This document shows positions 2,790 to 34,394 of a stretch of DNA of 46,313 nucleotides, one piece after another. The notes under the pieces were generated by a model. It was given only the letters and a program-made list of their open reading frames with translations. It was not told where the DNA came from and searched no databases. This DNA is from a virus. A program made the position numbers and the translations under genes. Each line of letters begins with the position of its first letter. The stretch's first letter is position 1. The stretch covers positions 1-46,313 of IMG/VR virus record IMGVR_UViG_3300042914_002633, one strand, 5' to 3'.

Positions 2790-2795
2790 ATAATA

Positions 2796-9486: not shown

Positions 9487-9702
9487 ATGGATCAATTTGT
9501 TACAACAGTAAAACTTAATCAAGAATTATATAATCAGTTTAAAGAACTGAATATACGAGGAAAAATATCTTTCCAAGACTTTGTAAATAAGTGTCTTGAA
9601 AAGTATTTGATAGACGCTAAATTTCAAACAGAAATTAGCGAAAGTATTTCTACTAAGTTAAGTTTTAATGCTCCATTTTCATTATCAAAGGAATCTAAAT
9701 GA
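9487..9702 (+). CDS. Ribbon-helix-helix DNA-binding protein
   Basis: A 71-residue protein from the ATG at 9487; a GTG start nine codons earlier would fall in the palindromic region and is less likely. It has the RHH order: a short strand TTVKLN (residues 5-10), helix QELYNQFKELN, turn NIRGKIS, and helix FQDFVNKCLEKYL. A polar tail of about 25 residues follows. RHH proteins bind DNA as dimers through the strand and commonly repress their own promoter. It overlaps the next gene by 4 nt and heads the glycan cluster, so it could control it. No toxin partner is visible beside it. Confidence 0.68.
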   Translation: MDQFVTTVKLNQELYNQFKELNIRGKISFQDFVNKCLEKYLIDAKFQTEISESISTKLSFNAPFSLSKESK

Positions 9703-10250: not shown

Positions 10251-10251
10251 T

Positions 10252-11906: not shown

Positions 11907-11907
11907 T

Positions 11908-13245: not shown

Positions 13246-13246
13246 T

Positions 13247-13894: not shown

Positions 13895-13895
13895 T

Positions 13896-14471: not shown

Positions 14472-14474
14472 TTT

Positions 14475-15122: not shown

Positions 15123-15126
15123 TATT

Positions 15127-15684
15127 ATGAGTAAATATGGATTATTAGACCCAGGAACGTGCATACCAGTATTAGAAGTTGCATTTGCGGTATATCAAAT
15201 AAATTCTGTATTAGAATTTGGATGTGGTATATGGAGTACTGGTTGTTTTGTTAGAAATAGCAAACAGACCACATCTATTGAAAATGTAGAAGAATGGGTA
15301 AAGTTTGTAAAAGAGGAATACAGTCATAAAAATAATTTGAATGTCGTTCATTATACAAAACCAATGAATGAATACTTTACTGAAACTAAAGAAAGTTATG
15401 ATCTGATTTTTATAGATGGAAATGACCGAAAAGAATGTTTACAAGCTGCATTTTATAGAAGTCCAATAATTGTTTGTCACGATATGCATACCAACGAATT
15501 CAAATGGCAATCAGTTAATGTTCCAAGTGATTATAATCTGATGCTATATACAGGATGCGAACCTTATATAACAGGCATATTTGGTCATAAAGATATATCA
15601 TTAAAAGAAAATATACTGAATAGAAAAAATTATAAACACAAAAACACATATATCGACGAATCCTTTTGGGTAACAGGAAATTAA
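15127..15684 (+). CDS. Methyltransferase-like protein
   Basis: A 185-residue Rossmann-type protein. VLEFGCGIWSTGCF near 28-41 is a motif I variant with the GxGxxS pattern, TTSIENVEEWVKFV near 48-61 fits the post-I acid, and YDLIFIDGNDRKECL near 93-107 is motif IV. PIIVCHDMHTNEF near 115-127 follows. The overall layout fits class I methyltransferases acting on small molecules, but the fold lacks a clear C-terminal cap, so catalysis is likely rather than certain. Codon and base use match its neighbours. Confidence 0.7.
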   Translation: MSKYGLLDPGTCIPVLEVAFAVYQINSVLEFGCGIWSTGCFVRNSKQTTSIENVEEWVKFVKEEYSHKNNLNVVHYTKPMNEYFTETKESYDLIFIDGNDRKECLQAAFYRSPIIVCHDMHTNEFKWQSVNVPSDYNLMLYTGCEPYITGIFGHKDISLKENILNRKNYKHKNTYIDESFWVTGN

Positions 15685-15690
15685 AAATAT

Positions 15691-16425
15691 ATGAAAAACG
15701 TAATAATATTTCAAGATTTCGTTGACACTATCACATATGGTAGAAATTATAAAATCGAAGAGTTGTATAAATACTTTCGTGCTCAAATTGATAATAGTCT
15801 GAGATTTGGTTGGAATCCCAGTGATATCGTAGTTGTTACCAATTTGGACTTCTCTTATAAAGATGTCACTATTATCAAAACAAATAGATTGTGTAGATAC
15901 AATAGATATTTTAATAAACAATATGGAATCTGTGAGTTGTTAGAAGAAAATTTAATAAATGACGACTTCTGGTTTCACGATTTTGATGATTGGCAAATTA
16001 ACAAATTTGAATTTCCAAAATTTGACGGTGTAATTGGTATGTCAAAGTATATCAATGACACACAGTGGAATACCGGATCAATTTTTATTAAAAAATCAAG
16101 CGTTAACATTTGGAGACTGATCGTAGATTTTATGGATGCCAATAAAGATCTTCTCAAAAATCACGGAGATGAAAACATAGTTAATTATGTTTATAGTCAG
16201 TATTTTAATGAACTCAGTCCATTCTTTTCTCATCTAAATACCAAATACAACGTTGGTGTAACTGGATTTCAGTATAGATATGATATGGCAGAAAAACCAG
16301 TGTGTATATTGGCATTTAAACCAGACGATGTTGTTGGGTATAACTTAATGTTAAATAATAACTTGATCGATTCTGAATTACGTGATATTTTTAATAAATA
16401 CAATCTTATAATAAAAAACGAATGA
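15691..16425 (+). CDS. GT-A-like putative glycosyltransferase
   Basis: A 244-residue protein. NVIIFQDFVDTI at the start, VVVTNLDFSYKDV near 48-60 and DFWFHDFDDWQINKF near 92-106 suggest a GT-A nucleotide-sugar fold with an FxDFDD acidic metal site. MSKYINDTQWNTGSIFIKKS near 117-136 resembles the segment after the DxD in capsular or galactosyl transferases (NxGsxF). I cannot name a family with certainty. It overlaps the next methyltransferase by ATGA, supporting membership of the glycan operon. Confidence 0.62.
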   Translation: MKNVIIFQDFVDTITYGRNYKIEELYKYFRAQIDNSLRFGWNPSDIVVVTNLDFSYKDVTIIKTNRLCRYNRYFNKQYGICELLEENLINDDFWFHDFDDWQINKFEFPKFDGVIGMSKYINDTQWNTGSIFIKKSSVNIWRLIVDFMDANKDLLKNHGDENIVNYVYSQYFNELSPFFSHLNTKYNVGVTGFQYRYDMAEKPVCILAFKPDDVVGYNLMLNNNLIDSELRDIFNKYNLIIKNE

Positions 16426-17045
16426 ATTTAACAGAACTCGCAGATTTTTATGAAACCGATAAAGGCACTCGTTTTAACGAGTGCCATAATTATACAAGCA
16501 TATATCAATCATTTATTTCAAATCAAGAAAAGAAAAAAATGTTAGAAATAGGATTGTTTGATGGTGCATCTACAATGATGTGGCAGAGTTTTAATCCTAA
16601 TTTAGAAAATGTTGTGATTGATATTTCTTCAAACAAATTAAAAAAACAATTTGAATCGAGTTTTGATAAAAATCGTGTTTCAATAGAATTAGGAGATCAA
16701 TCGGATGTTATTTTTTTAAAAAAAATAGGAGATAAATATAGTTCATTTGATTATATAATCGACGACGGAAGTCATTTTCAACATCATATACAAATTAGTT
16801 TCTCTGTTTTATTTGAATATCTGAAGTCAGGTGGTTTTTATTTTATAGAAGATTTACATGTACATTTATCTAAAAGATATTGTAGAGATCCTAAAGAATC
16901 AGTTATTTCTTTATTTGAATTTTTTAGTAAAAATCGCCATTTTAACTCACATTGTGTTAATAATGAAATTTTAAATAGATATAAAGATCAAATCAAATCG
17001 GTTAAATTCTTTAATAATAAACTTTTAGTAATTGAAAAGGTATGA
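16422..17045 (+). CDS. SAM-dependent O-methyltransferase (sugar O-methyltransferase-like)
   Basis: A 207-residue methyltransferase. The N-terminus has ELADFYETDKGTRF and HNYTSIYQSF, a segment that in known relatives precedes motif I in sugar O-methyltransferases of macrolide and tetracenomycin pathways. Motif I is MLEIGLFDGASTMMW near 41-55, VVIDIS is post-I, FDYIIDDGSHFQHHIQISF near 106-124 is the metal/catalytic motif and GGFYFIEDLHVHL near 134-146 adds a second acid. The best guess is O-methylation of a deoxy- or amino-sugar. A perfect 8-bp hairpin (16464-16485) lies over the YETDKGT-HNYT coding segment. Confidence 0.83.
   Translation: MNLTELADFYETDKGTRFNECHNYTSIYQSFISNQEKKKMLEIGLFDGASTMMWQSFNPNLENVVIDISSNKLKKQFESSFDKNRVSIELGDQSDVIFLKKIGDKYSSFDYIIDDGSHFQHHIQISFSVLFEYLKSGGFYFIEDLHVHLSKRYCRDPKESVISLFEFFSKNRHFNSHCVNNEILNRYKDQIKSVKFFNNKLLVIEKV
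16464..16485. repeat. 8-bp perfect inverted repeat near methyltransferase start
   Basis: GGCACTCG and CGAGTGCC flank a 6-nt loop about 42 nt into the methyltransferase gene. No T-run follows on either strand, so a terminator is unlikely. It may be a translation-modulating hairpin or chance within a conserved coding motif. Confidence 0.5.
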
Positions 17046-17068
17046 AGAAAATTATTATTTAACAATAT

Positions 17069-18532
17069 ATGAGTCGTAAAATTAAATTTGTAATGCCAAC
17101 ATTATTTCATCGTAAGGAGATTGAAATTGAATGTGCTGAAACACTTTATCAGCAGTCATTAAAACATAATTCGGAAAACGAAGTACATATGGTTTGTAAT
17201 TTTGATAGTTTGGAATTTGCACAATGGCAACCCAAATATCCCCACATTAAAAAACATATCTCACATTTGATGTACAATATATCAAAAGCTCTAAATGTAG
17301 TTGCTTTGGAGGAAAATACCAAAGACTTTGATTACTTTTGTTTTGTACATTCGGATGTGTTCTTTGAAGATGAAACTTGGATCGAAAAGTGTATTGAAGT
17401 ATATGAAACTCACGGAAATGTCGGCGTTATTGGAATAACAGCGCACAGTACATTTGAAAGATATCATAAACAAATAACAAACATCAAAGTAAATGGTATA
17501 AATGAAATGTACGAAGTTTTATGGTCCGATGGCATCATGTTCTTTAGTACTAAGTTATTTGACAAAATTGGCTATTTTGATGAACGATTCTTTGGTGATT
17601 GTGAAAGTCAAGATTTTTGTTATTCTGCATTTGAGAAGGGTTACAAAAATATCTATATACCAGACCATTATTTAAATTCTAAACACATAACAACACCTTT
17701 CCGATACAAATCTCTAAAAACAGAATTATTGTTAAACAACGTGGAAAAGTCTCAGAAGTTATTTTTTCACAAATGGGAACATATGTTTAAAACATATTTC
17801 CAAAATACTTATGAAAAACAAGCAAAATTATATAATATTATACCTAAAGACGAGACAAAAATGAAAAAAATATTTGTTATAACTACTCACTGTTCAAATG
17901 AATACTGGGAATCCGGCAATCATTATTTATATAATTGTTTAGATAGTTTACGTGAAATAAAACCAGATAAAATTATAATAGTAGATAATCAGTCTGTTAT
18001 TAAACCAAATTTTGATCAATTTAAAGATCTTAATATACATTATATATATGTTGAAAATCAGTCGGAAAGAGGTTTAACAGGAGCTTGGAATATAGGAATT
18101 AATGCAGCTATACAATATGGTCCATCATTAATATGTAACACTAATAGTGACGTAGAATTTGATCTTAGTTATAATAATCTATATAATCATATAATGCAAG
18201 ATAAAGATTCGTCTACTACAATTTATGGATCTAAAACAAACAATCCAGGATGGCAAACAGCTCAATATGTTTTAGATCGTGGAGCGTATATTTTATCAGG
18301 AAATAATAAATCGGATATATTGAATGGTTTTTGTATGTTTTTTACTAACGAATTTTATCATAAACATCAAGAGAATGGTTTATTATTCTCCAATGAAAAA
18401 GAAAGACCATGGGGCGGAAATGAACAAATCATGTGTTATTGGTCAAAAACTAAAAAAACATGTATAAAAGTATTAAATAACTGTTTTGTATATCACAAAA
18501 AAAAGGCTAGTTGGAGAAATTTAGTAAAATGA
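17069..18532 (+). CDS. Bimodular GT2 glycosyltransferase (two GT-A domains)
   Basis: A 487-residue protein made of two GT-A domains. Domain 1 (about 1-255) starts IKFVMPTLFHRKEIEIE and has the metal site CFVHSDVFFEDETWIEKC near 91-108 and a GIMFFS...FDERFFGDCESQDFCY acceptor region near 155-185. Domain 2 (about 265-487) starts MKKIFVITTHCSNEYW, has IIIVDNQS, RGLTGAWNIGINAA and CNTNSDVEFD, and ends in a HKKKASWRN tail. Two active sites suggest successive addition of two sugars, as in chondroitin or O-antigen polymerases. Met265 (base 17861) could also be an internal start giving domain 2 alone. Confidence 0.82.
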   Translation: MSRKIKFVMPTLFHRKEIEIECAETLYQQSLKHNSENEVHMVCNFDSLEFAQWQPKYPHIKKHISHLMYNISKALNVVALEENTKDFDYFCFVHSDVFFEDETWIEKCIEVYETHGNVGVIGITAHSTFERYHKQITNIKVNGINEMYEVLWSDGIMFFSTKLFDKIGYFDERFFGDCESQDFCYSAFEKGYKNIYIPDHYLNSKHITTPFRYKSLKTELLLNNVEKSQKLFFHKWEHMFKTYFQNTYEKQAKLYNIIPKDETKMKKIFVITTHCSNEYWESGNHYLYNCLDSLREIKPDKIIIVDNQSVIKPNFDQFKDLNIHYIYVENQSERGLTGAWNIGINAAIQYGPSLICNTNSDVEFDLSYNNLYNHIMQDKDSSTTIYGSKTNNPGWQTAQYVLDRGAYILSGNNKSDILNGFCMFFTNEFYHKHQENGLLFSNEKERPWGGNEQIMCYWSKTKKTCIKVLNNCFVYHKKKASWRNLVK

Positions 18533-19515
18533 AAATACAATATAAATACGCAATCGGTATACATGTCATGTTTTATGAAATTGAAATGTTATCTACATAT
18601 ATAGATGGGTTATTAAATCTTTTATCAACTGTAGATAACAAAGAAAATGTTTATTTAGATTTTTCTTTTAATACTTCACAGTTCTTTGAAAAAATAGATA
18701 TTTCAAAAACTTCTAAAGACGATCTTGCCGATAGATTTGAAATTGAACTAGCCAGATTAAAACAATTGCCTAATTTACATTATAAAATTATAGACAATGA
18801 TGTTGAATTTTATACTCAAACAAATTATCGTAGAGAGTTCAATACAAAATATTGTGAAAAGGTCGATTATTTAATGTGGGGGGAAACTGATAGTTTGTTT
18901 CCCAAAGAAGCTATAATTGGATTGGAGACTTTAACTCCTGTTATAAGATCTCAGGGTGTATATAGATTTATAGCTTGTTTTGCAGATAGAAAAATGTGGG
19001 ATAACAGTTGGGATGTTACAGTTCATCCGAAGTACTTGAATCACGTATATGATGACAAAGACGTTGATAATATAAATCAATCAAAATCAACTATGACAAT
19101 CGAACAGATGAATATCATCAACTCAGAAATTAAAGACCTTGATATACAAACCATAAATCATCCAAAAATAGATGGATCTTGTTTGGTATTGAGTAGTGAT
19201 TTAATTAAAAGCGGAGTTAATATACCGCCTTGTTTTATTCATAACGACGATGAGAGTTTATCAGTTATGGCACAAAAAATACTTGGAGAAAAATATGTTC
19301 AAGTTATATTCAAAAATATTTTAAAAGTACACGCTAGAAGACATCCAAATAAACGTATGTATATAGCTAACGAAAATAATCCAAGAGGATTTTGTGGAAA
19401 AGAAAAGGGAGATTGGTGGCAAGTTTTCAAGCAAATGTCACAACACAATCTAAATATACTTTTTAGTAATACAGGCAGATTTTATACATACGAAGATTTT
19501 AAAAATAATATATGA
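18529..19515 (+). CDS. GT-A-like putative glycosyltransferase
   Basis: A 328-residue protein from the ATG at 18529, which overlaps the previous stop as ATGA; GGAG lies about 11 nt upstream. IGIHVMFYEIEMLSTYIDGL near 8-27 resembles the first strand and helix of GT-A enzymes, and VDYLMWGETDSLFPKEAI near 111-128 looks like the metal-binding strand (ETDSLFP). VHARRHPNKRMY near 266-277 is basic and may contact a diphosphate. Family assignment is by pattern; it could be a glycan-modifying enzyme of another type. Both ends overlap neighbours by 4 nt. Confidence 0.6.
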   Translation: MKIQYKYAIGIHVMFYEIEMLSTYIDGLLNLLSTVDNKENVYLDFSFNTSQFFEKIDISKTSKDDLADRFEIELARLKQLPNLHYKIIDNDVEFYTQTNYRREFNTKYCEKVDYLMWGETDSLFPKEAIIGLETLTPVIRSQGVYRFIACFADRKMWDNSWDVTVHPKYLNHVYDDKDVDNINQSKSTMTIEQMNIINSEIKDLDIQTINHPKIDGSCLVLSSDLIKSGVNIPPCFIHNDDESLSVMAQKILGEKYVQVIFKNILKVHARRHPNKRMYIANENNPRGFCGKEKGDWWQVFKQMSQHNLNILFSNTGRFYTYEDFKNNI

Positions 19516-20459
19516 ACATTTGTTTTATCAGCCAAAACGGTCACGTTGGTAAGATTCCTCGTAACTTTTCAAACTGCCGTACAGAATTTTCTTGGCAAAT
19601 TGCGTTAAATGCGGATCATCTATCTTTTGATTATATTTGTCAAAACAAAGTACCGACATATGATTTAGCCATCATAATTTTACCAAAGAAATTGGAGATA
19701 ATTAACACAAATCAGATTTTAGACATTTGTAAATCTATTGGCAAAAAATTATCGGTAATGCAAGAAGGTCCGGCTTGGTATTATCAAGATTACAAATACG
19801 CAGATCAAGTTAACTATATAAACTTCTTAAGTGAAATGAATTTCTTGTTGGTTCACAATAAGAGTGATATTCCATACTTCAAAGGTATATTCAAGAAACC
19901 CACATTTAATCTTCAGTCTCTTATGATTGAAGATATTGTCAAAGATGTACCCCGTCAAAACAACCAAATGCCTATTATAGGTGGTAATTTCTGTAGTTGG
20001 TATGGCGGTATAGACAGTTACTTTGTAGCACAAAACTTTAATAAACCCATCTTCATCCCTAGTATGGGGCGTAAGATAGAAAATGAAGATCAATTTCCTA
20101 GCTTACATCATCTACCATATATGATGTGGAATGAGTGGATTAAAACACTTGCCAATTTTAATGTGGGCATACATTTAATGCGTACACATGCGGCTGGTAC
20201 ATTCGCTCTCAATTGCGCTTATTTGGGTATACCGTGTATAGGATATAAAGGTTTAGATACACAAGAAACTCTACATCCTGATCTGAGTATTAATATAGGA
20301 GATATAGACACAGCAAACAAACTATCAATAAAACTCCGAGATGACAAAGATTTTTATAATTACTGTTCAGAAACCGCCAAAGATAATTATCTAATGTATT
20401 ACATAGAGAAAAAATGGTTACAAAATTGGAATATAATTTATGAGCAAATTAAAGACTAA
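19512..20459 (+). CDS. GT-B-like putative glycosyltransferase
   Basis: A 315-residue protein with two Rossmann-like halves. The first half has MNICFISQNGHVGKIPRNF and a DLAIIILPKKLEI strand; the second half has IGGNFCSWYGGIDSYFVAQ near 155-173 and the donor-pocket-like VGIHLMRTHAAGTFALNCAY near 216-235, then LGIPCIGYKGLDTQETLHPD. This fits a GT-B enzyme of the GT4 type lacking an obvious E-x7-E. The gene overlaps the upstream one by ATGA and the dehydrogenase by 20 nt. Confidence 0.65.
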   Translation: MNICFISQNGHVGKIPRNFSNCRTEFSWQIALNADHLSFDYICQNKVPTYDLAIIILPKKLEIINTNQILDICKSIGKKLSVMQEGPAWYYQDYKYADQVNYINFLSEMNFLLVHNKSDIPYFKGIFKKPTFNLQSLMIEDIVKDVPRQNNQMPIIGGNFCSWYGGIDSYFVAQNFNKPIFIPSMGRKIENEDQFPSLHHLPYMMWNEWIKTLANFNVGIHLMRTHAAGTFALNCAYLGIPCIGYKGLDTQETLHPDLSINIGDIDTANKLSIKLRDDKDFYNYCSETAKDNYLMYYIEKKWLQNWNIIYEQIKD

Positions 20460-21243
20460 AGTAGGTATTGTTGGTTATGGTTATGTAGGAAATGCATTCT
20501 ATAATTTCTTTAAAAATCATTATGAAACGGTAATTTACGATCCATCATATATACTATCTGTATCAAAAGAAGAAATCAATAAATGTGATTTAGCAGTCGT
20601 ATGCGTGCCAACTCCAGAAAATGACGATGGTAGTTGTAATACGTCTATTGTAGAAGATACTATCAGTTGGTTAAATACTCCATTAATTCTACTCAAAAGT
20701 ACTGTGGAAATAGGAACTACTGATAGATTAATTAAAACATACAACAAAAACATCGTGTTTAGTCCGGAGTTTGCGGGGGAATCTAAACATTGGACTCCAG
20801 ATGGTTTTACAACAGATGTCAAACAAACCCCATTCTTCATTTTCGGAGGCAAAAAAGAATTGTGTTATAAATTAATTGAAATCTATACACCAATAACCGG
20901 CCCAAGTAAAACATATAGAGTTACAGAACCAATCAATGCCGAAATTACAAAGTATGTCACTAACACCCAGTTAGCTATGAAAGTTGCATATTGCAACGAA
21001 ATTTATGATCTCTGTGAAAAACTCGGTACTTCCTATTATGAAGTCCGTGATCTATGGTTATTAGATCCCCGTACAACTAAATCTCATACTGCCGTATTTA
21101 CAGGAGAACGTGGATTTGGCGGAAAATGTTTTCCAAAAGATACCAAAGCCATGGTTAAACTAGGCGATAAGGTTGGTGTCGATCTATCAATATTAAAAAC
21201 TGTCTTAAACAGCAACGAGAAAATGTTGAAAAGAAATGAATAA
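20440..21243 (+). CDS. Nucleotide-sugar 6-dehydrogenase, short form
   Basis: A 267-residue member of the UDP-glucose/GDP-mannose dehydrogenase family. The NAD-binding start is VGIVGYGYVGNAF near 8-20; VCVPTPENDDGSCNTS near 53-68 and LLKSTVEIGTTD near 85-96 belong to the same domain. The central domain has EITKYVTNTQLAMKVAYCNE near 168-187 and the catalytic cysteine in GFGGKCFPKDTKAM near 226-239. The family usually has about 390-450 residues with a C-terminal UDP-sugar-binding domain; here it is absent, the protein ending shortly after the central domain. It would oxidise an NDP-hexose to a uronic acid. Start overlaps the previous gene by 20 nt. Confidence 0.85.
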   Translation: MSKLKTKVGIVGYGYVGNAFYNFFKNHYETVIYDPSYILSVSKEEINKCDLAVVCVPTPENDDGSCNTSIVEDTISWLNTPLILLKSTVEIGTTDRLIKTYNKNIVFSPEFAGESKHWTPDGFTTDVKQTPFFIFGGKKELCYKLIEIYTPITGPSKTYRVTEPINAEITKYVTNTQLAMKVAYCNEIYDLCEKLGTSYYEVRDLWLLDPRTTKSHTAVFTGERGFGGKCFPKDTKAMVKLGDKVGVDLSILKTVLNSNEKMLKRNE

Positions 21244-22000
21244 AAATTGCATAGTAATGGTCGCTATTCAAGACGAATGTTCTAAATACGATCATCAAAA
21301 ATACTTTGAAGTTTCAAAACAATGTTGGCAGTCGTACTGTAAAAGACACAACATAGATTTTATAGTAGTCGATAAAAAATTACCCAACGTAAAATTTTGC
21401 GTTTGGCACAAAGAATTCGTTTTTGATTTCATCGAAGATAAATATGAAAAAATTGCATTAGTAGATTTTGATACCATGGTTCATTGGTCAGCTCCTAATT
21501 TTTTCGATTTATACAATGATGAATTCTGCGGGGTATTAGAAAATGAAAGTTTATTCTGGATTCAAAATAGTTTAAATGCGTTCAAAAACAGTTTTAATGA
21601 ATTAAAGAATGTAGATATAACTTTATCGGAATATATAAACGGAGGTATTTTATTCTTTAATAAATCCCACAAAAATTTCTTTGCAAAATTAAAGGAATTT
21701 TATATAACAAATAAATCTACATTTGATAATTGGAACGTTCCTAATACAGGAAAAGAACAAACCATATTAAATCTATATCTTAAGAAAGAAGGAGTTAAAA
21801 AGAAATATCTAGATTTTAGATTTAATACTATGAGATTAATTAAAAACGATTGGTTGCAATATAACTGGCAGATAAATGAGGATAAAACTCCATTTTTTAT
21901 TAAATACTCGTATATCTGGCACTTTACAGGATGTTCTATAGAAGAACGAACCAATCTAATGACGAGTATATGGCAACAAACTAAACATTTATATGGATAA
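21236..22000 (+). CDS. GT-A glycosyltransferase, MNN10/GMA12-like
   Basis: A 254-residue cytosolic protein. KIALVDFDTMVHWSAPNFF near 76-94 gives the metal-binding DxD (DFD) in the form used by alpha-galactosyl/mannosyl transferases of the GT34-like and GT8-like groups; INGGILFFNKSHKNFF near 134-149 is the matching NxGxxhhxxS acceptor segment. IWHFTGCS near 235-242 supplies the late histidine ligand. The next gene encodes a paralogue with the same order of motifs. It overlaps both neighbours by 8 nt. Confidence 0.82.
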   Translation: MNKNCIVMVAIQDECSKYDHQKYFEVSKQCWQSYCKRHNIDFIVVDKKLPNVKFCVWHKEFVFDFIEDKYEKIALVDFDTMVHWSAPNFFDLYNDEFCGVLENESLFWIQNSLNAFKNSFNELKNVDITLSEYINGGILFFNKSHKNFFAKLKEFYITNKSTFDNWNVPNTGKEQTILNLYLKKEGVKKKYLDFRFNTMRLIKNDWLQYNWQINEDKTPFFIKYSYIWHFTGCSIEERTNLMTSIWQQTKHLYG

Positions 22001-22748
22001 TATAGTATATATCATCAACATAGAAACTGATAAAAAACCAGGTAGAACAGCGCCATATAAATATGGAGTCGAATCTTGGAGAAAATGGTGTCACAAAAAT
22101 AATGCCAAATTAGTTGTTCTTGACCAAGCCATTTTACCATATGAAGATCTCAGACCAAATTGGCATAAAGTGTTTATATTTGATTTATTAGAACAATCAA
22201 ATATAGAAGTAAACAAAATAATCATCGTTGATGCAGATACCATTGTTCATCCAGACGCTCCTAATTTTTTCGAAATGGATGATGGTAAATTTTGCGTAGT
22301 TCCTAATATAGGATCATATGATTGGATTTTTAGAAGTGTTGAGAACTATAAAAAACACATATTCAATAATTACGACTTTGATGTTACTAAATACTTTAAT
22401 TCCGGTTTCATGATTTTGAACAAAAATCATAGATACTTTTTAGAAAAAGTTAAACAGTTTTATTTCTCTAATAAGGACAATCTAATAAAGATGCAAGAAA
22501 CATTTTTTACAGGTACAGATCAACCTGTGTTAAACTTCATGTGTCAAATCGAAAATATAGATATGAAATTTCTACCATATGAATTTAATATGCAAGATTT
22601 ACATAGAAGAGAAGGTCTGACTCCAGATATGCCCTATATTAATTTGGGATATATTTATCATTTTAACGCAATACCAAATAATAAAGACAACGTACAAACA
22701 ATTTATTGGATGGAAAAAACCTACAAATCTTTATATGAATCTCGATGA
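21993..22748 (+). CDS. GT-A glycosyltransferase, paralogue of preceding gene
   Basis: A 251-residue protein with the same plan as its neighbour: KIIIVDADTIVHPDAPNFF near 74-92 (DxD), YFNSGFMILNKNHRYFLEK near 128-146 (NxG segment) and IYHFNAIPNN near 228-237 (late histidine). The shared DTxVHxxAPNFF string points to a tandem duplication followed by strong divergence, so the two may use different donors or linkages. An alternative is two genes acquired together. It overlaps the next gene by 14 nt. Confidence 0.82.
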   Translation: MDNIVYIINIETDKKPGRTAPYKYGVESWRKWCHKNNAKLVVLDQAILPYEDLRPNWHKVFIFDLLEQSNIEVNKIIIVDADTIVHPDAPNFFEMDDGKFCVVPNIGSYDWIFRSVENYKKHIFNNYDFDVTKYFNSGFMILNKNHRYFLEKVKQFYFSNKDNLIKMQETFFTGTDQPVLNFMCQIENIDMKFLPYEFNMQDLHRREGLTPDMPYINLGYIYHFNAIPNNKDNVQTIYWMEKTYKSLYESR

Positions 22749-23589
22749 TAGAAAAAATATATCGTACTTTGGTGAATTTGGACCTGAAATGATGTTGTGT
22801 TTACCATATGCATATTGGTTACACACTCAAAATTTATTAGAATCTACTACTACTTGTCCAGACACACATTGTTTTTATTATTTCAGTCCAAAACACAGTG
22901 AAGTAAATACTCATCGTACAATAGATAGAGTTGCCGCAGGAAACAAAAATTTACCAAATTTTTACGAACACGATATTGAAAATTTTTGTTACAAATATTG
23001 GACTCCGCCTCCATTAAAAGAATACTATAGTAAAAATAACGAAATTGAATTTAGTAAAGAAATCGTAATCATAAGCAACAAGTATAATGTTGAATGGGGA
23101 AAATACCCAATTAATTATATTAATTTTGAAACATTGAATACATTACTTGATATGTTGTCAAAAAAATACACCGTAATATATAGACGACCAACGTTGGATA
23201 TGTGTGTAGGTGATCAAAACGAACTTCATGGTCAATTCCATATTCTTGATAAAAGTGGTAAAGTAACTGATTATGATTTATGTAAGAGTTATAATAACGT
23301 GTACACATTTCAAGATTTGATGAGTATGTATCCATATTTCTCATTTAATATGTTTCAATGTAAAGTCTTTTCTCTATGCGATAAATTTATCACTGTTCAA
23401 GGCGGAAGCAGTTATCTTCCAGGCTATTTCGCAAAAATGAATTTAAATTTAATTAAAAAAGGAAAAGAAATAATACCTGGATATTATACAAATCCAAATA
23501 GTTGGTATAAAAAACTAAATGGAGGTGAGATTGAATTGTCTACAACCGAGGACTCTTTAATTGAAAATGTTCAAAAATATTATATGTGA
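22735..23589 (+). CDS. Hypothetical protein of glycan cluster
   Basis: A 284-residue soluble protein that I do not recognise. It begins NISYFGEFGPEMMLCLPYAYWL; a middle strand EIVIISNKYNVEWGKYPIN near 103-121, a YTVIYRRPT strand near 141-149, and FSLCDKFITVQGGSSYLPGYF near 211-231 look like the second half of a GT-B or fucosyltransferase-like fold, where the glycine-serine loop sits near the donor. I give no family name. It overlaps both neighbours in frame-shifted fashion, consistent with the cluster's coupling. Confidence 0.55.
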   Translation: MNLDDRKNISYFGEFGPEMMLCLPYAYWLHTQNLLESTTTCPDTHCFYYFSPKHSEVNTHRTIDRVAAGNKNLPNFYEHDIENFCYKYWTPPPLKEYYSKNNEIEFSKEIVIISNKYNVEWGKYPINYINFETLNTLLDMLSKKYTVIYRRPTLDMCVGDQNELHGQFHILDKSGKVTDYDLCKSYNNVYTFQDLMSMYPYFSFNMFQCKVFSLCDKFITVQGGSSYLPGYFAKMNLNLIKKGKEIIPGYYTNPNSWYKKLNGGEIELSTTEDSLIENVQKYYM

Positions 23590-23617
23590 TCCAAAAAACA
23601 CTTCAATAGTTATTTAT

Positions 23618-24823
23618 ATGAAAATTAGTTTTATCCAACCAAGCAGAAACAACCTAAAATATCTTAAATGGAGTTACGAAGCTATTCGTAAAAATTTAAG
23701 TCATAAAGAACATGAAATCTGTGTTGCAGACGACTTTAGTAATGACGGTACATTGGAGTGGTGTAAGGAAACAGCTCAAAAAGATCCACATTTCAAATTC
23801 ATCCGTAATGATGGACCAACCAGATTGGGTCACACAATTCTATATGATCGTCTTATAAACGACGTTGCTACCAATGATGTGGTAATGATCTACCATGCCG
23901 ATATGTATGCTTGTCCCAACTTCGATAAATATGTAGAGAAATATATTCAACCAGGTACAATCGTTAGTTTAACTCGTATTGAACCACCTCTACATCCTCC
24001 AGGACCAGAGAAGATCGTACAAGCCTTTGGTACAGAACCAGAAGAGTTTAATGAAGCTGCTTTGTTGAAATGGTTCAATGATACCCGTTTGACAAGAAAA
24101 GATAAAACCACAGAAGGAATCTTTGCGCCATGGGCCCTTTATAAGAAGGATTTCCAATCTATTGGAGGTCATGACGATCTATATGCACCACAAAGTAAAG
24201 AAGATAGTGATATCTTTAATCGATTCTTGTTAAGTGGATGTAAGTTTGTACAAACATGGGAAGGATGTGTATATCACATGACATGTAGAGGTAGTAGATA
24301 TAACCCAACATTAACGACTGTTGGAAAAGAAAGCAACGAATGGTTAGAGCAAAATAATCGCAGTGCTAGAAACTTTATTCGTAAATGGGGACATTTTGTT
24401 AAACACAATGATACGATGAAGCCTATTGTTCCAAGCAGATATAATGTTGGATTTGTAGTACGTAATTGTGATGAATATAAACTTGCTCTATTAGAACCAT
24501 GGTGTGATACGATTTACACAGATGTTCCATATGACAGATACATTCAAGCTGAACAAAAAAACACAAAATTCGATCTAAAGAAAAAATTGAAAAGATACGA
24601 AGATCAAAAAATAAATGATATTATTATTGAATTCGATGCGGTAAAATTAAACAACCAAAGCTTTGAGTTCTTCAACATGATACAATTAATGTTAGAAGAT
24701 AGTGGAGTCGTCGGCGAATTAGAATATGATATTTTTAAAGTAAAAATAAATAATCTAAATAATTATAGCAAAAATCTAATCAATCTCAACGAGGATTGGT
24801 ACAACAATAAATTGACAAAATGA
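23618..24823 (+). CDS. GT2 glycosyltransferase with C-terminal extension
   Basis: A 401-residue protein from the ATG at 23618; an earlier in-frame start at 23561 would overlap the preceding gene. The GT2 domain has KISFIQPSRNNLKYLKWSYE, ICVADDFSNDGTLEW near 32-46, TRLGHTILYDRLINDV near 68-83 and the metal site IYHADMYACPNF near 90-101. EDSDIFNRFLLSGCK near 200-214 is the catalytic (E/D)D region. A segment of about 170 residues follows with no family I know. It ends in ATGA overlap with a membrane protein, which might anchor the machinery. Confidence 0.83.
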   Translation: MKISFIQPSRNNLKYLKWSYEAIRKNLSHKEHEICVADDFSNDGTLEWCKETAQKDPHFKFIRNDGPTRLGHTILYDRLINDVATNDVVMIYHADMYACPNFDKYVEKYIQPGTIVSLTRIEPPLHPPGPEKIVQAFGTEPEEFNEAALLKWFNDTRLTRKDKTTEGIFAPWALYKKDFQSIGGHDDLYAPQSKEDSDIFNRFLLSGCKFVQTWEGCVYHMTCRGSRYNPTLTTVGKESNEWLEQNNRSARNFIRKWGHFVKHNDTMKPIVPSRYNVGFVVRNCDEYKLALLEPWCDTIYTDVPYDRYIQAEQKNTKFDLKKKLKRYEDQKINDIIIEFDAVKLNNQSFEFFNMIQLMLEDSGVVGELEYDIFKVKINNLNNYSKNLINLNEDWYNNKLTK

Positions 24824-27150: not shown

Positions 27151-28065
27151 TCAAATTTTGAATTCTTTTTCAAACCGTTCAAGAGCATAGTCCTTAGCTT
27201 TGAATTCAAATTCGTAATCTACACCATCCATATCAACATATTCTTCAGGAATACTACGAACATAATCACCGTGCGCTCGTGGATTTTTATTTGTTAGATC
27301 ATTATCACTAAAATGAAATAGAGGGCGATAACTACCCCACGTAGACATAGCTAGTTTCATAGCATCCTTAGCAGATAAATTGCCTGGGTTACAACGATGG
27401 TGTAGATTATCGTAAGTAATTGGAATACCAGTTTTAGAATAAATCAAATCATACAACTGTTGAACATTCCAGCTATTAGGTTTGTCTTCATTCTCAAGAA
27501 CAAGCCTAGATCTCACATTTGGAGAAATGCTGTTATATACATCAATAAAACGCAATGCGATATCGTCTAGATTGCCTTTATAACAGTTCATATGAATATT
27601 GATAGGAGATTCATATGTTTGAGGCAAACCCATAGCATCCATCATTTTTCCATGGGCTTCCAATTCAATGATAGATTTTTTGACAACCGATTGATTTGCA
27701 CTAGCCGGCACAACAAATTGATCTGGATGTGTACTACACCGAATATTGTTTTTCTTGATGACAGATGTACACAAATCAAACTCTTGTTTAATTTTTGAAT
27801 AATTGTATGTAGTTTCGATTGAAAGATTTGCTTCTGGAAGAGTTTCCAAAGGCATCATACCACTACTAACACGATAGTTCCATTTGTGTAAAGCACAGTA
27901 CTCCAATGTCTTACGTGTTACATATGCATTGTTTAGTGTACGATCCGCTACAGTTTTTTCCGCAGTTTTACGTTCCAACGCAAGAAAACGAGTTTTCGTC
28001 ATTGTTGACGCTCGGATTTTTTGCTCTTGGAGTTTGAGTGAAATGCAACAGAGAGATTTTGTCAT
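27151..28065 (-). CDS. uvsE: UV damage endonuclease (UvsE/UvdE)
   Basis: A 304-residue TIM-barrel repair enzyme. I take the ATG at 28065 because the conserved first strand KSLCCISLKL begins there. Metal-ligand regions are visible: HPDQFVVPAS near 114-123, NIHMNCYKG near 159-167, RLVLENEDK near 188-196 (catalytic Glu), ITYDNLHHRCNPG near 216-228 and HFSD near 252-255. It nicks DNA 5' to UV photoproducts. The T4-type answer to UV is DenV, so this is a different repair route. The promoter -10 box is only 6 nt before this ATG, predicting a leaderless mRNA; a start farther downstream would lose strand 1. Confidence 0.92.
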   Translation of the reverse strand: MTKSLCCISLKLQEQKIRASTMTKTRFLALERKTAEKTVADRTLNNAYVTRKTLEYCALHKWNYRVSSGMMPLETLPEANLSIETTYNYSKIKQEFDLCTSVIKKNNIRCSTHPDQFVVPASANQSVVKKSIIELEAHGKMMDAMGLPQTYESPINIHMNCYKGNLDDIALRFIDVYNSISPNVRSRLVLENEDKPNSWNVQQLYDLIYSKTGIPITYDNLHHRCNPGNLSAKDAMKLAMSTWGSYRPLFHFSDNDLTNKNPRAHGDYVRSIPEEYVDMDGVDYEFEFKAKDYALERFEKEFKI

Positions 28066-28071
28066 TCTCTG

Positions 28072-28100
28072 TTTATACCACACTTTTTATAGAATGTCAA
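28072..28100 (-). promoter_or_regulatory. Sigma70-like promoter of uvsE
   Basis: TTGACA at 28100-28095 and TATAAA at 28077-28072 with a 17-bp spacer. The TGA inside TTGACA is the stop codon of the upstream tail-fibre gene. The predicted start is base 28065, the A of the UvsE ATG. Confidence 0.72.
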
Positions 28101-29427: not shown

Positions 29428-30612
29428 TTATCTACCAACTTCTTTAAAATATACACTTTTAGCCTCTTCATATGACATCCCAATCATATTGTTGTAGAAA
29501 TGTATATTGGTCTTTAAATTTGATTCACTCTTTAGCTTTTTATACCGTTCTACAGCCTTGGGTACCCACCACTCACAAACAGCTTGAGTATCACGTTTAA
29601 ACAAGTCTTTCATGACCAATTTATCATCATCAATCTTGTTTTGTAGATAATCTTTGGTGTTTTCATAAAAACAACTGTAATATACCCCACGTTCATATCC
29701 ATGTTGATAATGACTCTGTTTAATATTACACTTACTAAAAATCATTCCTATTACCCTGCTCTTTGCTCCGGTAACAGGTCCAGACACACCTTCACGTTGG
29801 GTCATAGCTTTATCATATTTCTCCGCACAATTATCTTTTACCCATTCATGCCATACTTTGTAGATATTTTCATCTGGTTTAATAGAAATCTTACCAGCAC
29901 TACTACCACACTTGTGCCACCATTTCAAACTATTATACATACTATAACTGCCATACAAACTGGTTGTAGTCATACCTACCAATGTTTGATTATATAACTG
30001 TTTCCACAATTCTCGTACAGTACTAGTAGTAATCATAGCGGCTACTAGTTTACCACCTAGAAAGTTGTAACCAATAGGTTGAGTACTCATAATACAACTA
30101 CCAATAGCACTATGAGCTAGTTTTTTATCTTTAATCTTATTGTCAGATGTCCACCCTAGATACGTATCACGATCACTAATAGCAATTACATCGCTGGACA
30201 CACTAATTGCACCAATATAACGTGGGTTATCTTTATTGCCATCTGTTACAAGAAATTTTAGAAATCTACCCGGAGTTTGATCAAATGACATTGTATGACC
30301 AAATATACGAATTAAAGTCCAGTCTTCATTGTCACGTTTAGAATTAACATGAACCAACGTTGGATTGCAATTTTCTATTTCATTAATTGTCAGTTGTTCA
30401 TCATTAAAATCAGTAGGAGTCCAAATCTTGGCTTTTACTTCATTTAACTTGCCGGATGATCCGTTGAATGACTGAACTTCTTGCCATTTCTTATAAAACG
30501 TCTGTTCTTCCACAGACATAGATTTTAGAAAATTAAGATTATCAATTAATTTCTTTTTGTTTGTTTCAAAGTCAAAAGCCTCAATTCCAAAATATTCTTG
30601 TAATGCGTCCAT
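29428..30612 (-). CDS. DruA-like (DUF4338-type) protein, putative
   Basis: A 394-residue soluble protein. The centre reads RYIGAISVSSD near 140-150, DRDTYLGWTSDNKIKDKKLA near 156-175, then GGKLVAAMIT near 196-205 and a TTTSLYGSYSMYNSLKWW motif near 225-242. From memory, RDxxhGW followed by a basic stretch, then a LhGGKLhA strand and a SLYGxSxxYxxL block, matches the DUF4338 family that includes DruA of the Druantia anti-phage system. In a phage it could be a defence-like, nucleic-acid-acting protein or an anti-defence decoy. The N-terminal 120 residues match nothing I know. Family call is from memory and needs a profile search. Confidence 0.5.
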   Translation of the reverse strand: MDALQEYFGIEAFDFETNKKKLIDNLNFLKSMSVEEQTFYKKWQEVQSFNGSSGKLNEVKAKIWTPTDFNDEQLTINEIENCNPTLVHVNSKRDNEDWTLIRIFGHTMSFDQTPGRFLKFLVTDGNKDNPRYIGAISVSSDVIAISDRDTYLGWTSDNKIKDKKLAHSAIGSCIMSTQPIGYNFLGGKLVAAMITTSTVRELWKQLYNQTLVGMTTTSLYGSYSMYNSLKWWHKCGSSAGKISIKPDENIYKVWHEWVKDNCAEKYDKAMTQREGVSGPVTGAKSRVIGMIFSKCNIKQSHYQHGYERGVYYSCFYENTKDYLQNKIDDDKLVMKDLFKRDTQAVCEWWVPKAVERYKKLKSESNLKTNIHFYNNMIGMSYEEAKSVYFKEVGR

Positions 30613-30630
30613 ATTTATAATTAGTATACC

Positions 30631-30876
30631 ATGGCATTTAAAAAAATCAATCTAAAAGATAAAACATTTTATATATTTGAAATATCCTCTACTAAATTTT
30701 TAGTTTTAGATAGTGAGATGGATCAACCACTTTATTATGGCAGTTGGAATATGACCTCGGCATACATACGCACTATAAAAGAAAAAGCACCAAAAGCTAT
30801 TATCAATTATTATACAAAAGAAAAAAGCGGATTGCTTAAATACAATCCGCTTTGGTCATATGTACCTAAACCTTAG
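30631..30876 (+). CDS. Small hypothetical protein
   Basis: An 81-residue protein on the plus strand, the only plus gene in the 25-46 kb block, lying between divergent and convergent partners. It opens with alternating strands (KTFYIFEISSTKFLVLDSE). Its end, residues about 65-75, overlaps an inverted repeat that looks like a minus-strand terminator (30824-30853). Its stop overlaps the next minus-strand gene's stop by 4 nt. No family recognised. Codon use is ordinary. Confidence 0.55.
   Translation: MAFKKINLKDKTFYIFEISSTKFLVLDSEMDQPLYYGSWNMTSAYIRTIKEKAPKAIINYYTKEKSGLLKYNPLWSYVPKP
30824..30853 (-). terminator. Intrinsic terminator of winged-helix-like gene
   Basis: On the minus strand AAAGCGGATTG pairs exactly with CAATCCGCTTT over an 8-nt loop and is followed by a T-run (TTTTTTCTTTT). 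It lies 20 bp beyond the minus-strand gene 30873-31256 and inside the convergent small plus-strand gene. Confidence 0.72.
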
Positions 30877-31256
30877 GCTCCAACAACATTATTTGATACA
30901 TTAATCTTTGTCTCTGTACTCTTTCGATCAAAGATATCAACAGTAGTTGGCATATTTGTGATTTTAATTATATTAACAGTTGAAGCATCCTTCAAGATAA
31001 CTTGACGACTCTTTGCTTCCTCAATGTGTTCCTTAGTAGGAGTACCATACACAAATACCAACGTTGGACGACCTTTGCCATTATGTAGAACACCAATCTC
31101 AGTGATTTCTCCACTTTCCATTGCTTTCTTCATACGAACTCGTAGTGTAATTTCTACGAATTCTGGATTATTAGCATTCAACTCTTTAATAGTAAAGACG
31201 TTTGAAGGCCATGTTACTGTTAGGTTTGTCTTGTTCTTTCTGTCTGTCTTTTTCAT
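30873..31256 (-). CDS. Winged-helix-like DNA-binding protein, putative
   Basis: A 127-residue basic protein. FTIKELNANNPEFVEITLRV near 21-40 reads like two helices with a turn, and GVLHNGKGRPTLVFVYG near 54-70 like a beta wing, an order typical of winged-helix transcription factors (RPxLVY form). It has a perfect consensus sigma70 promoter (TTGACA-16-TATAAT), an AGAAAGGAT leader and its own terminator, so it is a single-gene unit probably made early and in quantity. A regulatory role is likely but not proven. Confidence 0.68.
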   Translation of the reverse strand: MKKTDRKNKTNLTVTWPSNVFTIKELNANNPEFVEITLRVRMKKAMESGEITEIGVLHNGKGRPTLVFVYGTPTKEHIEEAKSRQVILKDASTVNIIKITNMPTTVDIFDRKSTETKINVSNNVVGA

Positions 31257-31307: not shown

Positions 31308-31335
31308 ATTATAACACGTTTATATTATATGTCAA
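31308..31335 (-). promoter_or_regulatory. Consensus sigma70 promoter of winged-helix-like gene
   Basis: TTGACA at 31335-31330 and TATAAT at 31313-31308, with a 16-bp spacer; both hexamers are perfect. The -35 hexamer lies within the last codons of the VWA gene. Start near 31301; the leader of about 45 nt carries AGAAAGGA before the ATG. Confidence 0.85.
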
Positions 31336-33397
31336 TAGCATCCATCATCTTTGTATTGATAGTACTAACAATCTGATTTAGATTTTCTACATTGATAAAG
31401 TTAGCGTCTTTTCCATACATCCTCTTGAAATTGTCGCGATATGCATCACAATCATATTCAGATACAAAGTATGAAATGACATTATAACCACTTTCACGAA
31501 TTTTATTTACCTGTTTACGTGTATGATTACATCCCTCTTCACCATGATAGTTGAAATAATTACCGTTTGGAGCACTATAAATAAATGCTGGTTCACCGTC
31601 GCTAATATTAACAAAATAACTATTTGTATTGGTACTAGCTTTAGGCAAATATCGCATTAGTGCCTCAAAACACAATCCTTCAGGAGTTGTATTAGTTGGT
31701 GCTAGATAAGCAAATAGATTTTTAATCTTAGAGAACTTATCTACACGTGAATCATAAGCAATTGCAATATACGGATTGTGTCCACTTGACGTTCTAAAAC
31801 TAATAGTAACCTCAACGTTATCAATCATAGATGTAGCTTTTGCTAGAGCAACACACAGTTTAATTGTACGATTCCACTTTTTACCCCGCATACTTGCGCT
31901 AGCATCCACACTAATATGGAAGTTAACTTTCTTATACTTTGTAGTAAAATTATTATAAAAGATGTTGGTATCAGTATCAAATCCAAGTTCGTGCATTAAA
32001 CGCTTGTCAATCTTACCCAAATTACGACGGGTAAACTTATCAACATTAATTTCATTACGAATTTGTAGACGGCGACCTAGCTTAGTACCCAATACAATAC
32101 CAGCGTCAACATTCTTTTGATAATCAGAATAAGCTTGTTGATTGTTTTTGCCAATCGTCATTGGAAATTCCTCAGACAAAAGCAATTCTTTGGTCATGTT
32201 CTTAACAAAGATACACTCAACATTTCCAATCATTCCTTTTGACTTAAGCTCTTCTTGAGCTACAGGCACAAGATCAATCTGACTCTTTTCAAGAATATCA
32301 AGCAAATCTTTTTCACGCTTGGTCACTTTCTTCTTCTTGAGTTTACCAGCAAGAAAATCTTTTTGCTTTTCAAAAGACTTAACAATCTTGTTCTTTTTAG
32401 ACTTGCTGAGATTATCATCTTTACCAATATCAGCCGTAACATCTTTATTATCAGGTGTTACAGTTGATTCAGTGCCTCCAAGAATATCTGCAACATCAGC
32501 ATTTGTATTAGATTGATCTGAATTATCAGAAGGCGCACCAATACCAGAATCAGCTGATAAACCCTCACCTTTTTCAGACGATTTATCTTCGTTTTTATGT
32601 TCGTTAATATTCTTAAACACAATCTCAGCAATATTGTAAGCGACATTCAACCTATCTTTTGGAGTGGTCAAACGCTTGATATTTGATAGATCAAGTTCTC
32701 TAGCAATATCATACAATCCAGGCAACGCTTTCAAAGAAGTGTCTGGGTTTGTAAGATTAATAATACGAAACACGTATGACTCAATGCTTAGTGTACGATA
32801 CAGATCGCTAGTCAAAGCATCTGAGATTACTTTGTTATTAAAGTATTCATCGTACAAAGCATCATAGTATCCACGATAACCAGGAGCGTTAGAATGTACC
32901 GTATAATCAATATAACGATCTTCTACATAATTTAGAATAGTCTGACAAATCTTACCCACTTCATCTTTTGAAATGTTTAGTTTTTCACTATACCCATAAA
33001 TTTCCCGTGGGACATTCATCCATACAGTCTTGAACATTTCAAAATCAGAATATTTGATGTGGCTGCCTTCATGTAAGGCTAGTCCGACAGCCACATCAAA
33101 ATTATCTTTCTTAGTAATATCGCTACTGATATAAACCACCTTACCATCAGTACAATTTACCGAACTATCATTAAATACTACAGGTACATTCTGATTGGTC
33201 AGAATACTAACATAGTTAGCAACAGCGCGACGAGCCGATGACAAACGAATCAATCGGGCTGTATTGTCAGAAAGTCGATCTTCGGCAGCAATATCTGCAT
33301 CTAGACCATTTTCTTCCTCAATAGCCGCATCAAGTTCGTCTTCCCAATCCCAATCGTAATTGTTATCCTTCAACCAGAAGTCACTGTAGTTACTCAT
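31325..33397 (-). CDS. VWA-domain protein with HEXXH metallopeptidase-like site (CobT-like)
   Basis: A 690-residue protein. Residues 109-113 are HEGSH, an HExxH zinc motif, followed by NYVEDRYID near 156-164 that can give the third ligand Glu. A low-complexity linker rich in Asp, Ser and Asn (about 268-335) follows. Residues 498-502 read DASAS, the MIDAS start of a von Willebrand A domain (VNFHISVDASASMRGKKW), with TxxxG-type downstream residues in TPEGLCFEAL. This is the CobT-like partner of the MoxR ATPase encoded 25 bp upstream. Such pairs remodel or insert metal into targets; CobS homologues occur in cyanophages. Target here is unknown. Confidence 0.85.
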   Translation of the reverse strand: MSNYSDFWLKDNNYDWDWEDELDAAIEEENGLDADIAAEDRLSDNTARLIRLSSARRAVANYVSILTNQNVPVVFNDSSVNCTDGKVVYISSDITKKDNFDVAVGLALHEGSHIKYSDFEMFKTVWMNVPREIYGYSEKLNISKDEVGKICQTILNYVEDRYIDYTVHSNAPGYRGYYDALYDEYFNNKVISDALTSDLYRTLSIESYVFRIINLTNPDTSLKALPGLYDIARELDLSNIKRLTTPKDRLNVAYNIAEIVFKNINEHKNEDKSSEKGEGLSADSGIGAPSDNSDQSNTNADVADILGGTESTVTPDNKDVTADIGKDDNLSKSKKNKIVKSFEKQKDFLAGKLKKKKVTKREKDLLDILEKSQIDLVPVAQEELKSKGMIGNVECIFVKNMTKELLLSEEFPMTIGKNNQQAYSDYQKNVDAGIVLGTKLGRRLQIRNEINVDKFTRRNLGKIDKRLMHELGFDTDTNIFYNNFTTKYKKVNFHISVDASASMRGKKWNRTIKLCVALAKATSMIDNVEVTISFRTSSGHNPYIAIAYDSRVDKFSKIKNLFAYLAPTNTTPEGLCFEALMRYLPKASTNTNSYFVNISDGEPAFIYSAPNGNYFNYHGEEGCNHTRKQVNKIRESGYNVISYFVSEYDCDAYRDNFKRMYGKDANFINVENLNQIVSTINTKMMDAIDI

Positions 33398-33422: not shown

Positions 33423-34394
33423 TTAGAAAGGAGGCTGATCACTCTTTAGTGGATCATTAAACAGCTTATCCTTTGATTCAACTTTTACATACTTTTGTAC
33501 CAACTGACGAACATAGGTACGTTCACTGTCAACGCCACCATCGTCACTGAAGTTAGGATAGATGGTAGTCTCTGCGATTTCAAGTAAATTAAATCCATCA
33601 ACAATTAGTTCAGCGATTTCAACTGTACTACGTGTTGGAATAAAATTAGTAAGCTTGCTATCATCCTGCTTTACTTGCTTACGGGTATGATCGGCAATTT
33701 CACAAACAGCCTTTAGAGTTTCAAGCTGACCATCTGAATTCAGATTGAATCGATTCTTAAGAAGATTGTACTCACTATCTTTGTCAAGTGGGGTAACCTC
33801 AATCTTGACTGGAAAACGTGAAAGTAGAGCACGATCCATTACACGGGTAGCGGTATATTCGTTACCTACGTTAGCGGTAGCGATAAAGGTAACACCTTCA
33901 GCAACCTTAACGACTTCACAATCGTCCTTTTCATCCAAACGAAGATAACGCTGGAGATCATCAAGAACAGTCATTAGAATATTAACACCATCGTGATGAC
34001 TACGACTAATTTCATCAAGAAGAATGATGGCATTAGGGGTACGAATAGCCTTGATGAAACTAGACTCCTTGAATAGAGTACCAGTCTTCTTATCAAAGTG
34101 AGTGTTGCCAATCAAAGCACTACGAGCATCTTGTGTAGCACCCAGATTAAAATAGAAGAAGTTATCTTCACGACCAATAGCCTTAGCAACAGTTTGCGCT
34201 GCTAGAGTCTTACCACAACCAGTTGGACCAAGAAGCAGAATGTTCTTGCCACGAATAGCACTACGTACCATATACTTCCACTTGAGATCATCCATAATCA
34301 AAGAAGATGGACGTAGATTTACACAAGTGTCAAGATAAGCCTTGATATTGAAGTCCTTGCCAGTAACCAGATTAAACGAGTTTTTGTTTTTCAT
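33423..34394 (-). CDS. MoxR/CobS-like AAA+ ATPase
   Basis: A 323-residue AAA+ ATPase: Walker A LLLGPTGCGKTLAAQ near 53-67, Walker B in AIILLDEISRSHHDG near 121-135, sensor 1 FIATANVGNEYTATRVMDRA near 169-188, with the arginine finger in ALLSRFPVKI near 189-198. It belongs to the MoxR/CobS clade that works with VWA-domain partners as a chaperone or metal-insertion motor. The partner is the next gene, 25 bp downstream. It has its own promoter right after a terminator, so the pair forms a two-gene operon. Length suits family (about 300-340). Confidence 0.92.
   Translation of the reverse strand: MKNKNSFNLVTGKDFNIKAYLDTCVNLRPSSLIMDDLKWKYMVRSAIRGKNILLLGPTGCGKTLAAQTVAKAIGREDNFFYFNLGATQDARSALIGNTHFDKKTGTLFKESSFIKAIRTPNAIILLDEISRSHHDGVNILMTVLDDLQRYLRLDEKDDCEVVKVAEGVTFIATANVGNEYTATRVMDRALLSRFPVKIEVTPLDKDSEYNLLKNRFNLNSDGQLETLKAVCEIADHTRKQVKQDDSKLTNFIPTRSTVEIAELIVDGFNLLEIAETTIYPNFSDDGGVDSERTYVRQLVQKYVKVESKDKLFNDPLKSDQPPF

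What the first reader, a model, noticed from the sequence alone, without database searches (positions are those of the whole stretch)
29428..30612. Phage-encoded protein resembling Druantia DruA (DUF4338)
Seen: central RDTYLGW, GGKLVAAM and TTTSLYGSYSMYNSL segments in an otherwise unrecognised 394-residue protein. Known: DruA belongs to DUF4338 and is part of an anti-phage system; its biochemical role is not settled. Inference: a phage homologue may act on DNA as part of competition between phages, or be a captured defence gene reused by the phage. It sits between a tail-fibre gene and a probable regulator, separate from the replication genes.
Basis: partly seen in the sequence, partly recalled or inferred. 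Interest (0 to 1): 0.62.

Follow-up and report, generated by a model that had tools for sequence, protein, structure and literature searches.

The report
Phage DruA-like enzyme, probably modifies DNA
A gene in this environmental phage really is a relative of the bacterial defence protein DruA, but its relatives occupy the spot beside the phage DNA-copying clamp where sister phages keep known DNA-decorating enzymes, so it is more likely an enzyme that chemically marks the phage's own DNA than a stolen defence gene.

Summary
In detail: window 29428-30612, on the minus strand, encodes a 394-aa protein that matches Pfam PF14236 (DruA/DUF4338) at 72.9 bits, E=3e-20. Its role is probably not captured defence. 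The protein belongs to a large, old viral lineage (over 560 IMG/VR stretches, cyanophages, Pelagibacter phages) that is co-inherited with phage DNA polymerase (Mantel r=0.84). The AlphaFold model (pLDDT 90) has CoA acyltransferases as its nearest solved folds, weakly. A profile chain links it to Mom, the GNAT that modifies phage Mu DNA (E=1.6e-13, then 2.6e-11; a direct comparison fails). Most telling, in many relatives the gene lies exactly between sliding clamp and clamp loader. In 24 clusters of related contigs with that slot filled, it holds DruA-like (5), TSPPY DNA methyltransferase (15), D12 adenine methyltransferase (2) or TET-associated DNA glycosyltransferase (2). Mom genes cluster near DruA-like genes. 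Best reading: a Mom-like GNAT that acylates bases of new phage DNA to evade restriction. Catalysis and substrate are inferred, not shown. In the window itself the slot is empty and the gene sits in a MoxR/VWA-like operon. DruA-like proteins in cyanophages were already reported; the slot exchange and Mom link appear new.

The parts
29428..30612 (-). DruA-like (PF14236/DUF4338) protein, 394 aa, predicted DNA-modifying GNAT-type enzyme
   Evidence: Pfam E=3.3e-20, PADLOC, phrog_19197, AlphaFold pLDDT 90.4
29641..30375 (-). DruA domain, residues 80-324
   Evidence: Pfam match limits
30151..30171 (-). RDTYLGW motif, residues 148-154 (R148, D149, I/L152, G153, W154 conserved across viral and bacterial members)
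   Evidence: alignment A6
30046..30084 (-). TQPIGYNFLGGKL, residues 177-189, probable equivalent of GNAT motif A (CoA-binding turn)
   Evidence: near-invariant in A1/A2; GNAT equivalence is inference
29935..29970 (-). TTTSLYGSYSMY, residues 215-226; aligns with bacterial LLETFVD..GT.YRAANW and Mom VQSFAD..G.VYQASNF
   Evidence: alignment A6; hhalign A7 vs Mom
30873..31256 (-). small conserved protein (127 aa) just upstream of the DruA-like gene in this lineage; no Pfam match
31325..33397 (-). 690-aa VWA-like protein (DASASMRG motif read by eye; no Pfam match); 22 of 22 relatives whose contig reaches far enough have DruA-like downstream
33423..34394 (-). MoxR/CobS-type AAA ATPase
   Evidence: PF07728 E=5e-18, phrog_249
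2790..2795 (-). empty clamp / clamp-loader junction in the window; in relatives this is the slot that holds DruA-like or a DNA-modification gene
   Evidence: ORFs 2796-3533 (clamp) and 1833-2789 (loader); slot survey

Best explanation
The gene encodes a GNAT-fold enzyme of the DruA/DUF4338 family, distantly related to Mom, that most likely transfers an acyl-type group from a CoA-like donor onto bases of the phage's own DNA during or just after replication, so that host restriction and related systems do not cut it. Shown: DUF4338 membership; a confident model whose nearest solved folds are CoA acyltransferases (weak scores); profile links from DruA-like to short DUF4338 to Mom; replacement at one genomic slot by DNA methyltransferases and a DNA glycosyltransferase; co-inheritance with replication genes; nearness of Mom genes. 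Inferred: that it is catalytic, that DNA is the substrate, which base and which group, and that restriction evasion is the purpose.
For: PF14236 match. AlphaFold pLDDT 90.4; the listed Foldseek PDB hits are almost entirely GNAT/MYST/p300/NAT10-type CoA acyltransferases; DUF4338 was called a GNAT domain in PMC10853773. hhalign: viral family vs short phage paralogue + bacterial DUF4338, prob 98.0, E=1.6e-13; that set vs Mom, prob 97.3, E=2.6e-11; bacterial DUF4338 vs Mom E=4.4e-8; unrelated controls E 0.48 and 0.07. Bacterial DUF4338 L268 also matches Pfam Mom, E=2e-4, below Pfam's cut-off. Slot between clamp and clamp loader, 34 clusters at 90% clamp identity: 10 empty, 24 filled, of which DruA-like 5, TSPPY methyltransferase 15, D12 methyltransferase 2, TAGT glycosyltransferase 2 (Pfam checks). 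In L122 a true Mom gene follows the clamp and the DruA-like gene is elsewhere. Mom within 9 kb: 3 of 6 clusters with DruA-like against 0 of 28 without, p=0.003; Mom in 10 of 13 large records at E<=0.001. Mantel r 0.84 with polymerase. One bacterial-contig relative is fused to a ParB domain.
Against: Direct profile comparison of the viral family with Mom finds nothing, and the mixed alignment gives only E=0.047. Foldseek E-values are marginal (best 3.5e-3) with low TM-scores. No catalytic or CoA-binding residue was tested in a structure. In the window itself the gene is not in the clamp slot, and no Mom, TAGT or TSPPY gene was found (the window is a fragment). Slot exchange shows shared neighbourhood, not shared chemistry; it was not compared with a random gene position, and some filled slots also carry other genes (for example IMP dehydrogenase in L436, polymerase in L438).
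Confidence: 0.6

Rival explanations
1. A GNAT that acylates a protein, for example the sliding clamp, clamp loader or a host protein, to favour phage replication or host takeover.
For: Most known GNATs act on amines of proteins or small molecules (general knowledge); phage GNATs acting on host RNA polymerase are described in PMC7824862; in relatives the gene neighbours clamp and loader genes, which could be substrates.
Against: The same slot is filled in sister phages by enzyme families known for acting on DNA, and the closest characterised relative found by profile is Mom, a DNA-modifying enzyme.
Confidence: 0.17
2. A non-catalytic member that binds DNA or modified DNA, or a decoy that blocks host Druantia by imitating DruA.
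For: It resembles DruA, and the canonical GNAT glycine-rich turn is not demonstrated to bind CoA; the ParB-fused relative suggests a role on DNA that need not be catalytic.
Against: Strictly conserved polar and glycine motifs over many members in varied phages, and presence in cyanophages and Pelagibacter phages, whose small-genome hosts are unlikely Druantia carriers (inference).
Confidence: 0.13
3. A captured Druantia defence gene that the phage uses against competing phages.
For: DruA homology; the MoxR ATPase next door weakly matches ATPases of candidate defence systems.
Against: Viral proteins form one old set with genuine DruA (L272, 592 bits to PADLOC DruA1) outside it; co-inheritance with replication genes; no other Druantia component among the neighbours.
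Confidence: 0.07

Closest known systems
DruA of type I Druantia (PF14236, formerly DUF4338)
   Same: Same Pfam family over residues 80-324; RDxxIGW motif shared; similar length to PADLOC model PDLC00002 (407 positions).
   Different: No other Druantia component found near it; own viral lineage; replication-linked neighbourhood in relatives; different conserved core (TQPxGYNFLGGKL, TTTSLYGS).
DruA-like proteins of Synechococcus phages (Phold paper PMC12774648; phrog_19197, unknown function)
   Same: Homologous (S-PRM1 29.7% identical over 66% of the query); same PHROG; next to clamp-loader genes in cyanophages.
   Different: Window protein is only about 25-30% identical; the passages read in that paper note the fold match to DruA, with no slot exchange or Mom link.
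Mom family (PF25680; phage Mu DNA modification, GNAT superfamily)
   Same: Linked by profiles through short DUF4338 proteins; co-linear motifs; both found near or in the clamp slot.
   Different: No direct Pfam or profile match to Mom; extra N- and C-terminal regions; Mom co-exists as a separate gene in many relatives.
TAGT (PF20691), N6_N4_Mtase (PF01555) and D12 (PF02086) DNA-modification enzymes of sister phages
   Same: Occupy the same slot between sliding clamp and clamp loader.
   Different: Unrelated folds and chemistry; the analogy is positional.

Membership tests
PF14236 DruA / DUF4338 | Match above the curated Pfam cut-off over the domain | tested here: met
   72.9 bits against cut-off 27; 52 of 52 relatives match
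Druantia type I defence system | DruA encoded with the other Druantia genes including the DruE helicase | tested here: not met
   No scanned neighbour matches a Druantia model; longest ORF in the window is the 883-aa polymerase. The window is a fragment, so only the surroundings are excluded.
Druantia type I defence system | Protection of a cell against phages | not testable with these tools
   Needs an infection assay
GNAT superfamily | GNAT fold | tested here: inconclusive
   Confident model; listed PDB hits are nearly all CoA acyltransferases but best E is 3.5e-3; published assignment of DUF4338 as GNAT
GNAT superfamily | Acyl-CoA binding and transfer | not testable with these tools
   No coordinates or assay available
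Mom family PF25680 | Match to the Mom model or profile | tested here: not met
   No Pfam Mom hit for the protein; viral family vs Mom alignment not significant. Distant relation only through intermediates.
Mom family PF25680 | Modifies bases in DNA | not testable with these tools
   Needs nucleoside mass spectrometry; supported only by gene context

The most novel reading that the evidence does not exclude
The DruA/DUF4338 family is a second class of DNA-base-modifying GNATs besides Mom, making a still undescribed acyl-type base in many marine and freshwater T4-like phages; DruA in Druantia would then be a DNA-marking or mark-reading part derived from the same ancestor.
Probability: 0.35. Interest if true: 0.8.

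Novelty: new variant of a known kind. Interest (0 to 1): 0.6.

Why it matters
DruA's biochemical role in Druantia is unsettled. If its abundant phage relatives modify DNA, that gives a concrete, quickly testable function for the family, predicts a new DNA base in cultured cyanophages and Pelagibacter phages, and corrects 'phage-encoded defence gene' labels that annotation tools now give them.

Tried and rejected
Captured Druantia gene: rejected as the main reading by neighbourhood, tree and co-inheritance. Direct Mom membership: tested, not met. Sequence search of solved structures with protein and profile: no significant hit. NCBIfam: no hit. Equating the window's VWA-like and 127-aa proteins with the Pelagibacter 'peptidase' or a cyanophage DNA-binding protein: no similarity found; only the MoxR/CobS ATPase is shared. 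Literature on a DruA mechanism or on DNA-modification genes at the clamp locus: none found in the searched library. In the quick tree row L278 was mistranslated (stops) and is ignored.

Full report
WHAT IS THERE. The ORF is real, at exactly the stated coordinates, on the minus strand. It encodes 394 residues and matches Pfam PF14236 DruA with 72.9 bits, E=3.3e-20 over residues 80-324, against a curated cut-off of 27 bits. PADLOC's DruA1 model agrees (63.7 bits), and PHROGs places it in phrog_19197, function unknown. The window is a 46,313-base virus record. Its polymerase is closest to that of Microcystis phage Mel-JY01 (42%).

FAMILY. A first scan found 77 IMG/VR loci at 56-100% identity; a profile scan hit its limit with 565 confirmed stretches. 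Named relatives are the Pelagibacter phages Mosig and HTVC008M (32-34%) and 25 records of cyanophages and marine viruses (about 24-30%), one annotated 'methylcarbamoylase mom'. Invariant or near-invariant stretches are RDxYxGW, TQPxGYNxxGGKL and TTTSLYGSxSxY. The gene is under purifying selection.

FOLD. AlphaFold2 with 52 natural sequences gives pLDDT 90.4, pTM 0.83. The solved structures listed as nearest are almost entirely CoA acyltransferases of the GNAT/MYST/p300/NAT10 kind, but weakly (best E 3.5e-3). DUF4338 has been called a GNAT domain in print (PMC10853773). The best viral library hits are uncharacterised giant-virus proteins (Faunusvirus, E=6e-19).

LINK TO MOM. Viral DruA-like against Mom gives nothing. 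But viral DruA-like against a set of short phage paralogues plus bacterial DUF4338 gives probability 98.0, E=1.6e-13, and that set against ten Mom proteins gives 97.3, E=2.6e-11 over 166 columns; bacterial DUF4338 alone against Mom gives E=4.4e-8. Controls against a sliding-clamp alignment give 0.48 and 0.07. Independently, a bacterial DUF4338 fused to a transposase part also matches Pfam Mom at E=2e-4, below Pfam's cut-off. A mixed alignment gave only E=0.047, so the link depends on intermediates.

NEIGHBOURHOOD. In the window's own subgroup the order MoxR ATPase - VWA-like - 127 aa - DruA-like is constant; all 22 VWA-like relatives whose contig reaches far enough carry the DruA-like gene next. 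In a second, larger subgroup the DruA-like gene lies exactly between sliding clamp and clamp loader: 30 loci of one scan and 15 of 20 of another. In cyanophages it lies beside clamp-loader genes.

THE SLOT. In sister contigs the same clamp / clamp-loader slot holds other genes. A survey of 75 contigs, 34 clusters at 90% clamp identity, found 10 empty and 24 filled: DruA-like 5, TSPPY methyltransferase 15, D12 adenine methyltransferase 2, TAGT glycosyltransferase 2. Pfam confirms TAGT (E=3e-35) and PF01555 (E=2e-6), and D12 (E=2e-20 and 2e-22); PF01555 was weaker for L408 (below cut-off). In L122 a true Mom gene (E=4e-45) follows the clamp directly while the DruA-like gene is elsewhere. Mom genes lie within 9 kb in 3 of 6 clusters with DruA-like and 0 of 28 without (p=0.003), and in 10 of 13 large records.

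EVOLUTION. In the 60-row tree the window lies in a well-supported phage-only clade, and full-length viral proteins are far from transposon-type bacterial DUF4338. A genuine DruA (L272, 592 bits to PADLOC DruA1) falls outside the viral set in a smaller tree, with weak deep support and long branches. Distances correlate with polymerase (r=0.84), VWA-like (0.81) and clamp loader (0.75). This points to old vertical inheritance, not a recent capture.

MECHANISM. The most economical reading is a GNAT-type DNA modification enzyme acting alongside replication, comparable to Mom and positionally interchangeable with DNA methyltransferases and a DNA glycosyltransferase. Shown are family, context and distant homology. 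Inferred are catalysis, DNA as substrate, the kind of group transferred, and restriction evasion. Protein acylation near the replisome is the main rival.

NOVELTY. DruA-like proteins in six Synechococcus phages were reported from structure comparison (PMC12774648). I found no report of the slot exchange or the DruA-Mom profile link in the library searched; absence there is not proof.

Noticed in passing
BFVD hits A0A3G4ZXG3, A0A5K0UAJ3, A0A3G4ZRA1: Uncharacterised giant-virus proteins (Faunusvirus, Yasminevirus, Dasosvirus) match the model (E 6e-19 to 1e-9), so the family seems to reach giant viruses of protists.
   Followed up: no
L073:8312-9073, L115:14068-14808, L113:12094-12876, L121:11211-11933: A second, short DUF4338 paralogue (about 250 aa, closer to bacterial transposon-type DUF4338) near a dNMP-kinase-like gene in some relatives; it bridges the long viral form and Mom.
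   Followed up: partly
L085:6915-9116; L086:6903-9101: DruA-like domain fused to a ParB N-terminal domain (L085) or to an unknown N-terminal region (L086) in bacterial MAG contigs; L084, L085 and L089 lie near recombinase-like genes.
   Followed up: partly
L267, L268: Bacterial DUF4338 domains fused to the N-terminus of transposase domains.
   Followed up: partly
L134:634-2176, L420, L422, L425: Two tandem Mom genes upstream of the DNA polymerase gene, so these phages may carry three GNAT-type modification enzymes.
   Followed up: partly
window 29431-29436 (residues 393-394): The last residue, arginine, is kept even in distant cyanophage members (VGR or IIR ending); the reason is unknown.
   Followed up: no
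window 9699-24823: A run of glycosyltransferase-like and methyltransferase-like genes on the plus strand (read by eye), opposite in direction to the replication genes.
   Followed up: no
window 27151-28083: UvdE UV-damage endonuclease gene close downstream (PF03851 E=3e-42), kept in most close relatives.
   Followed up: partly
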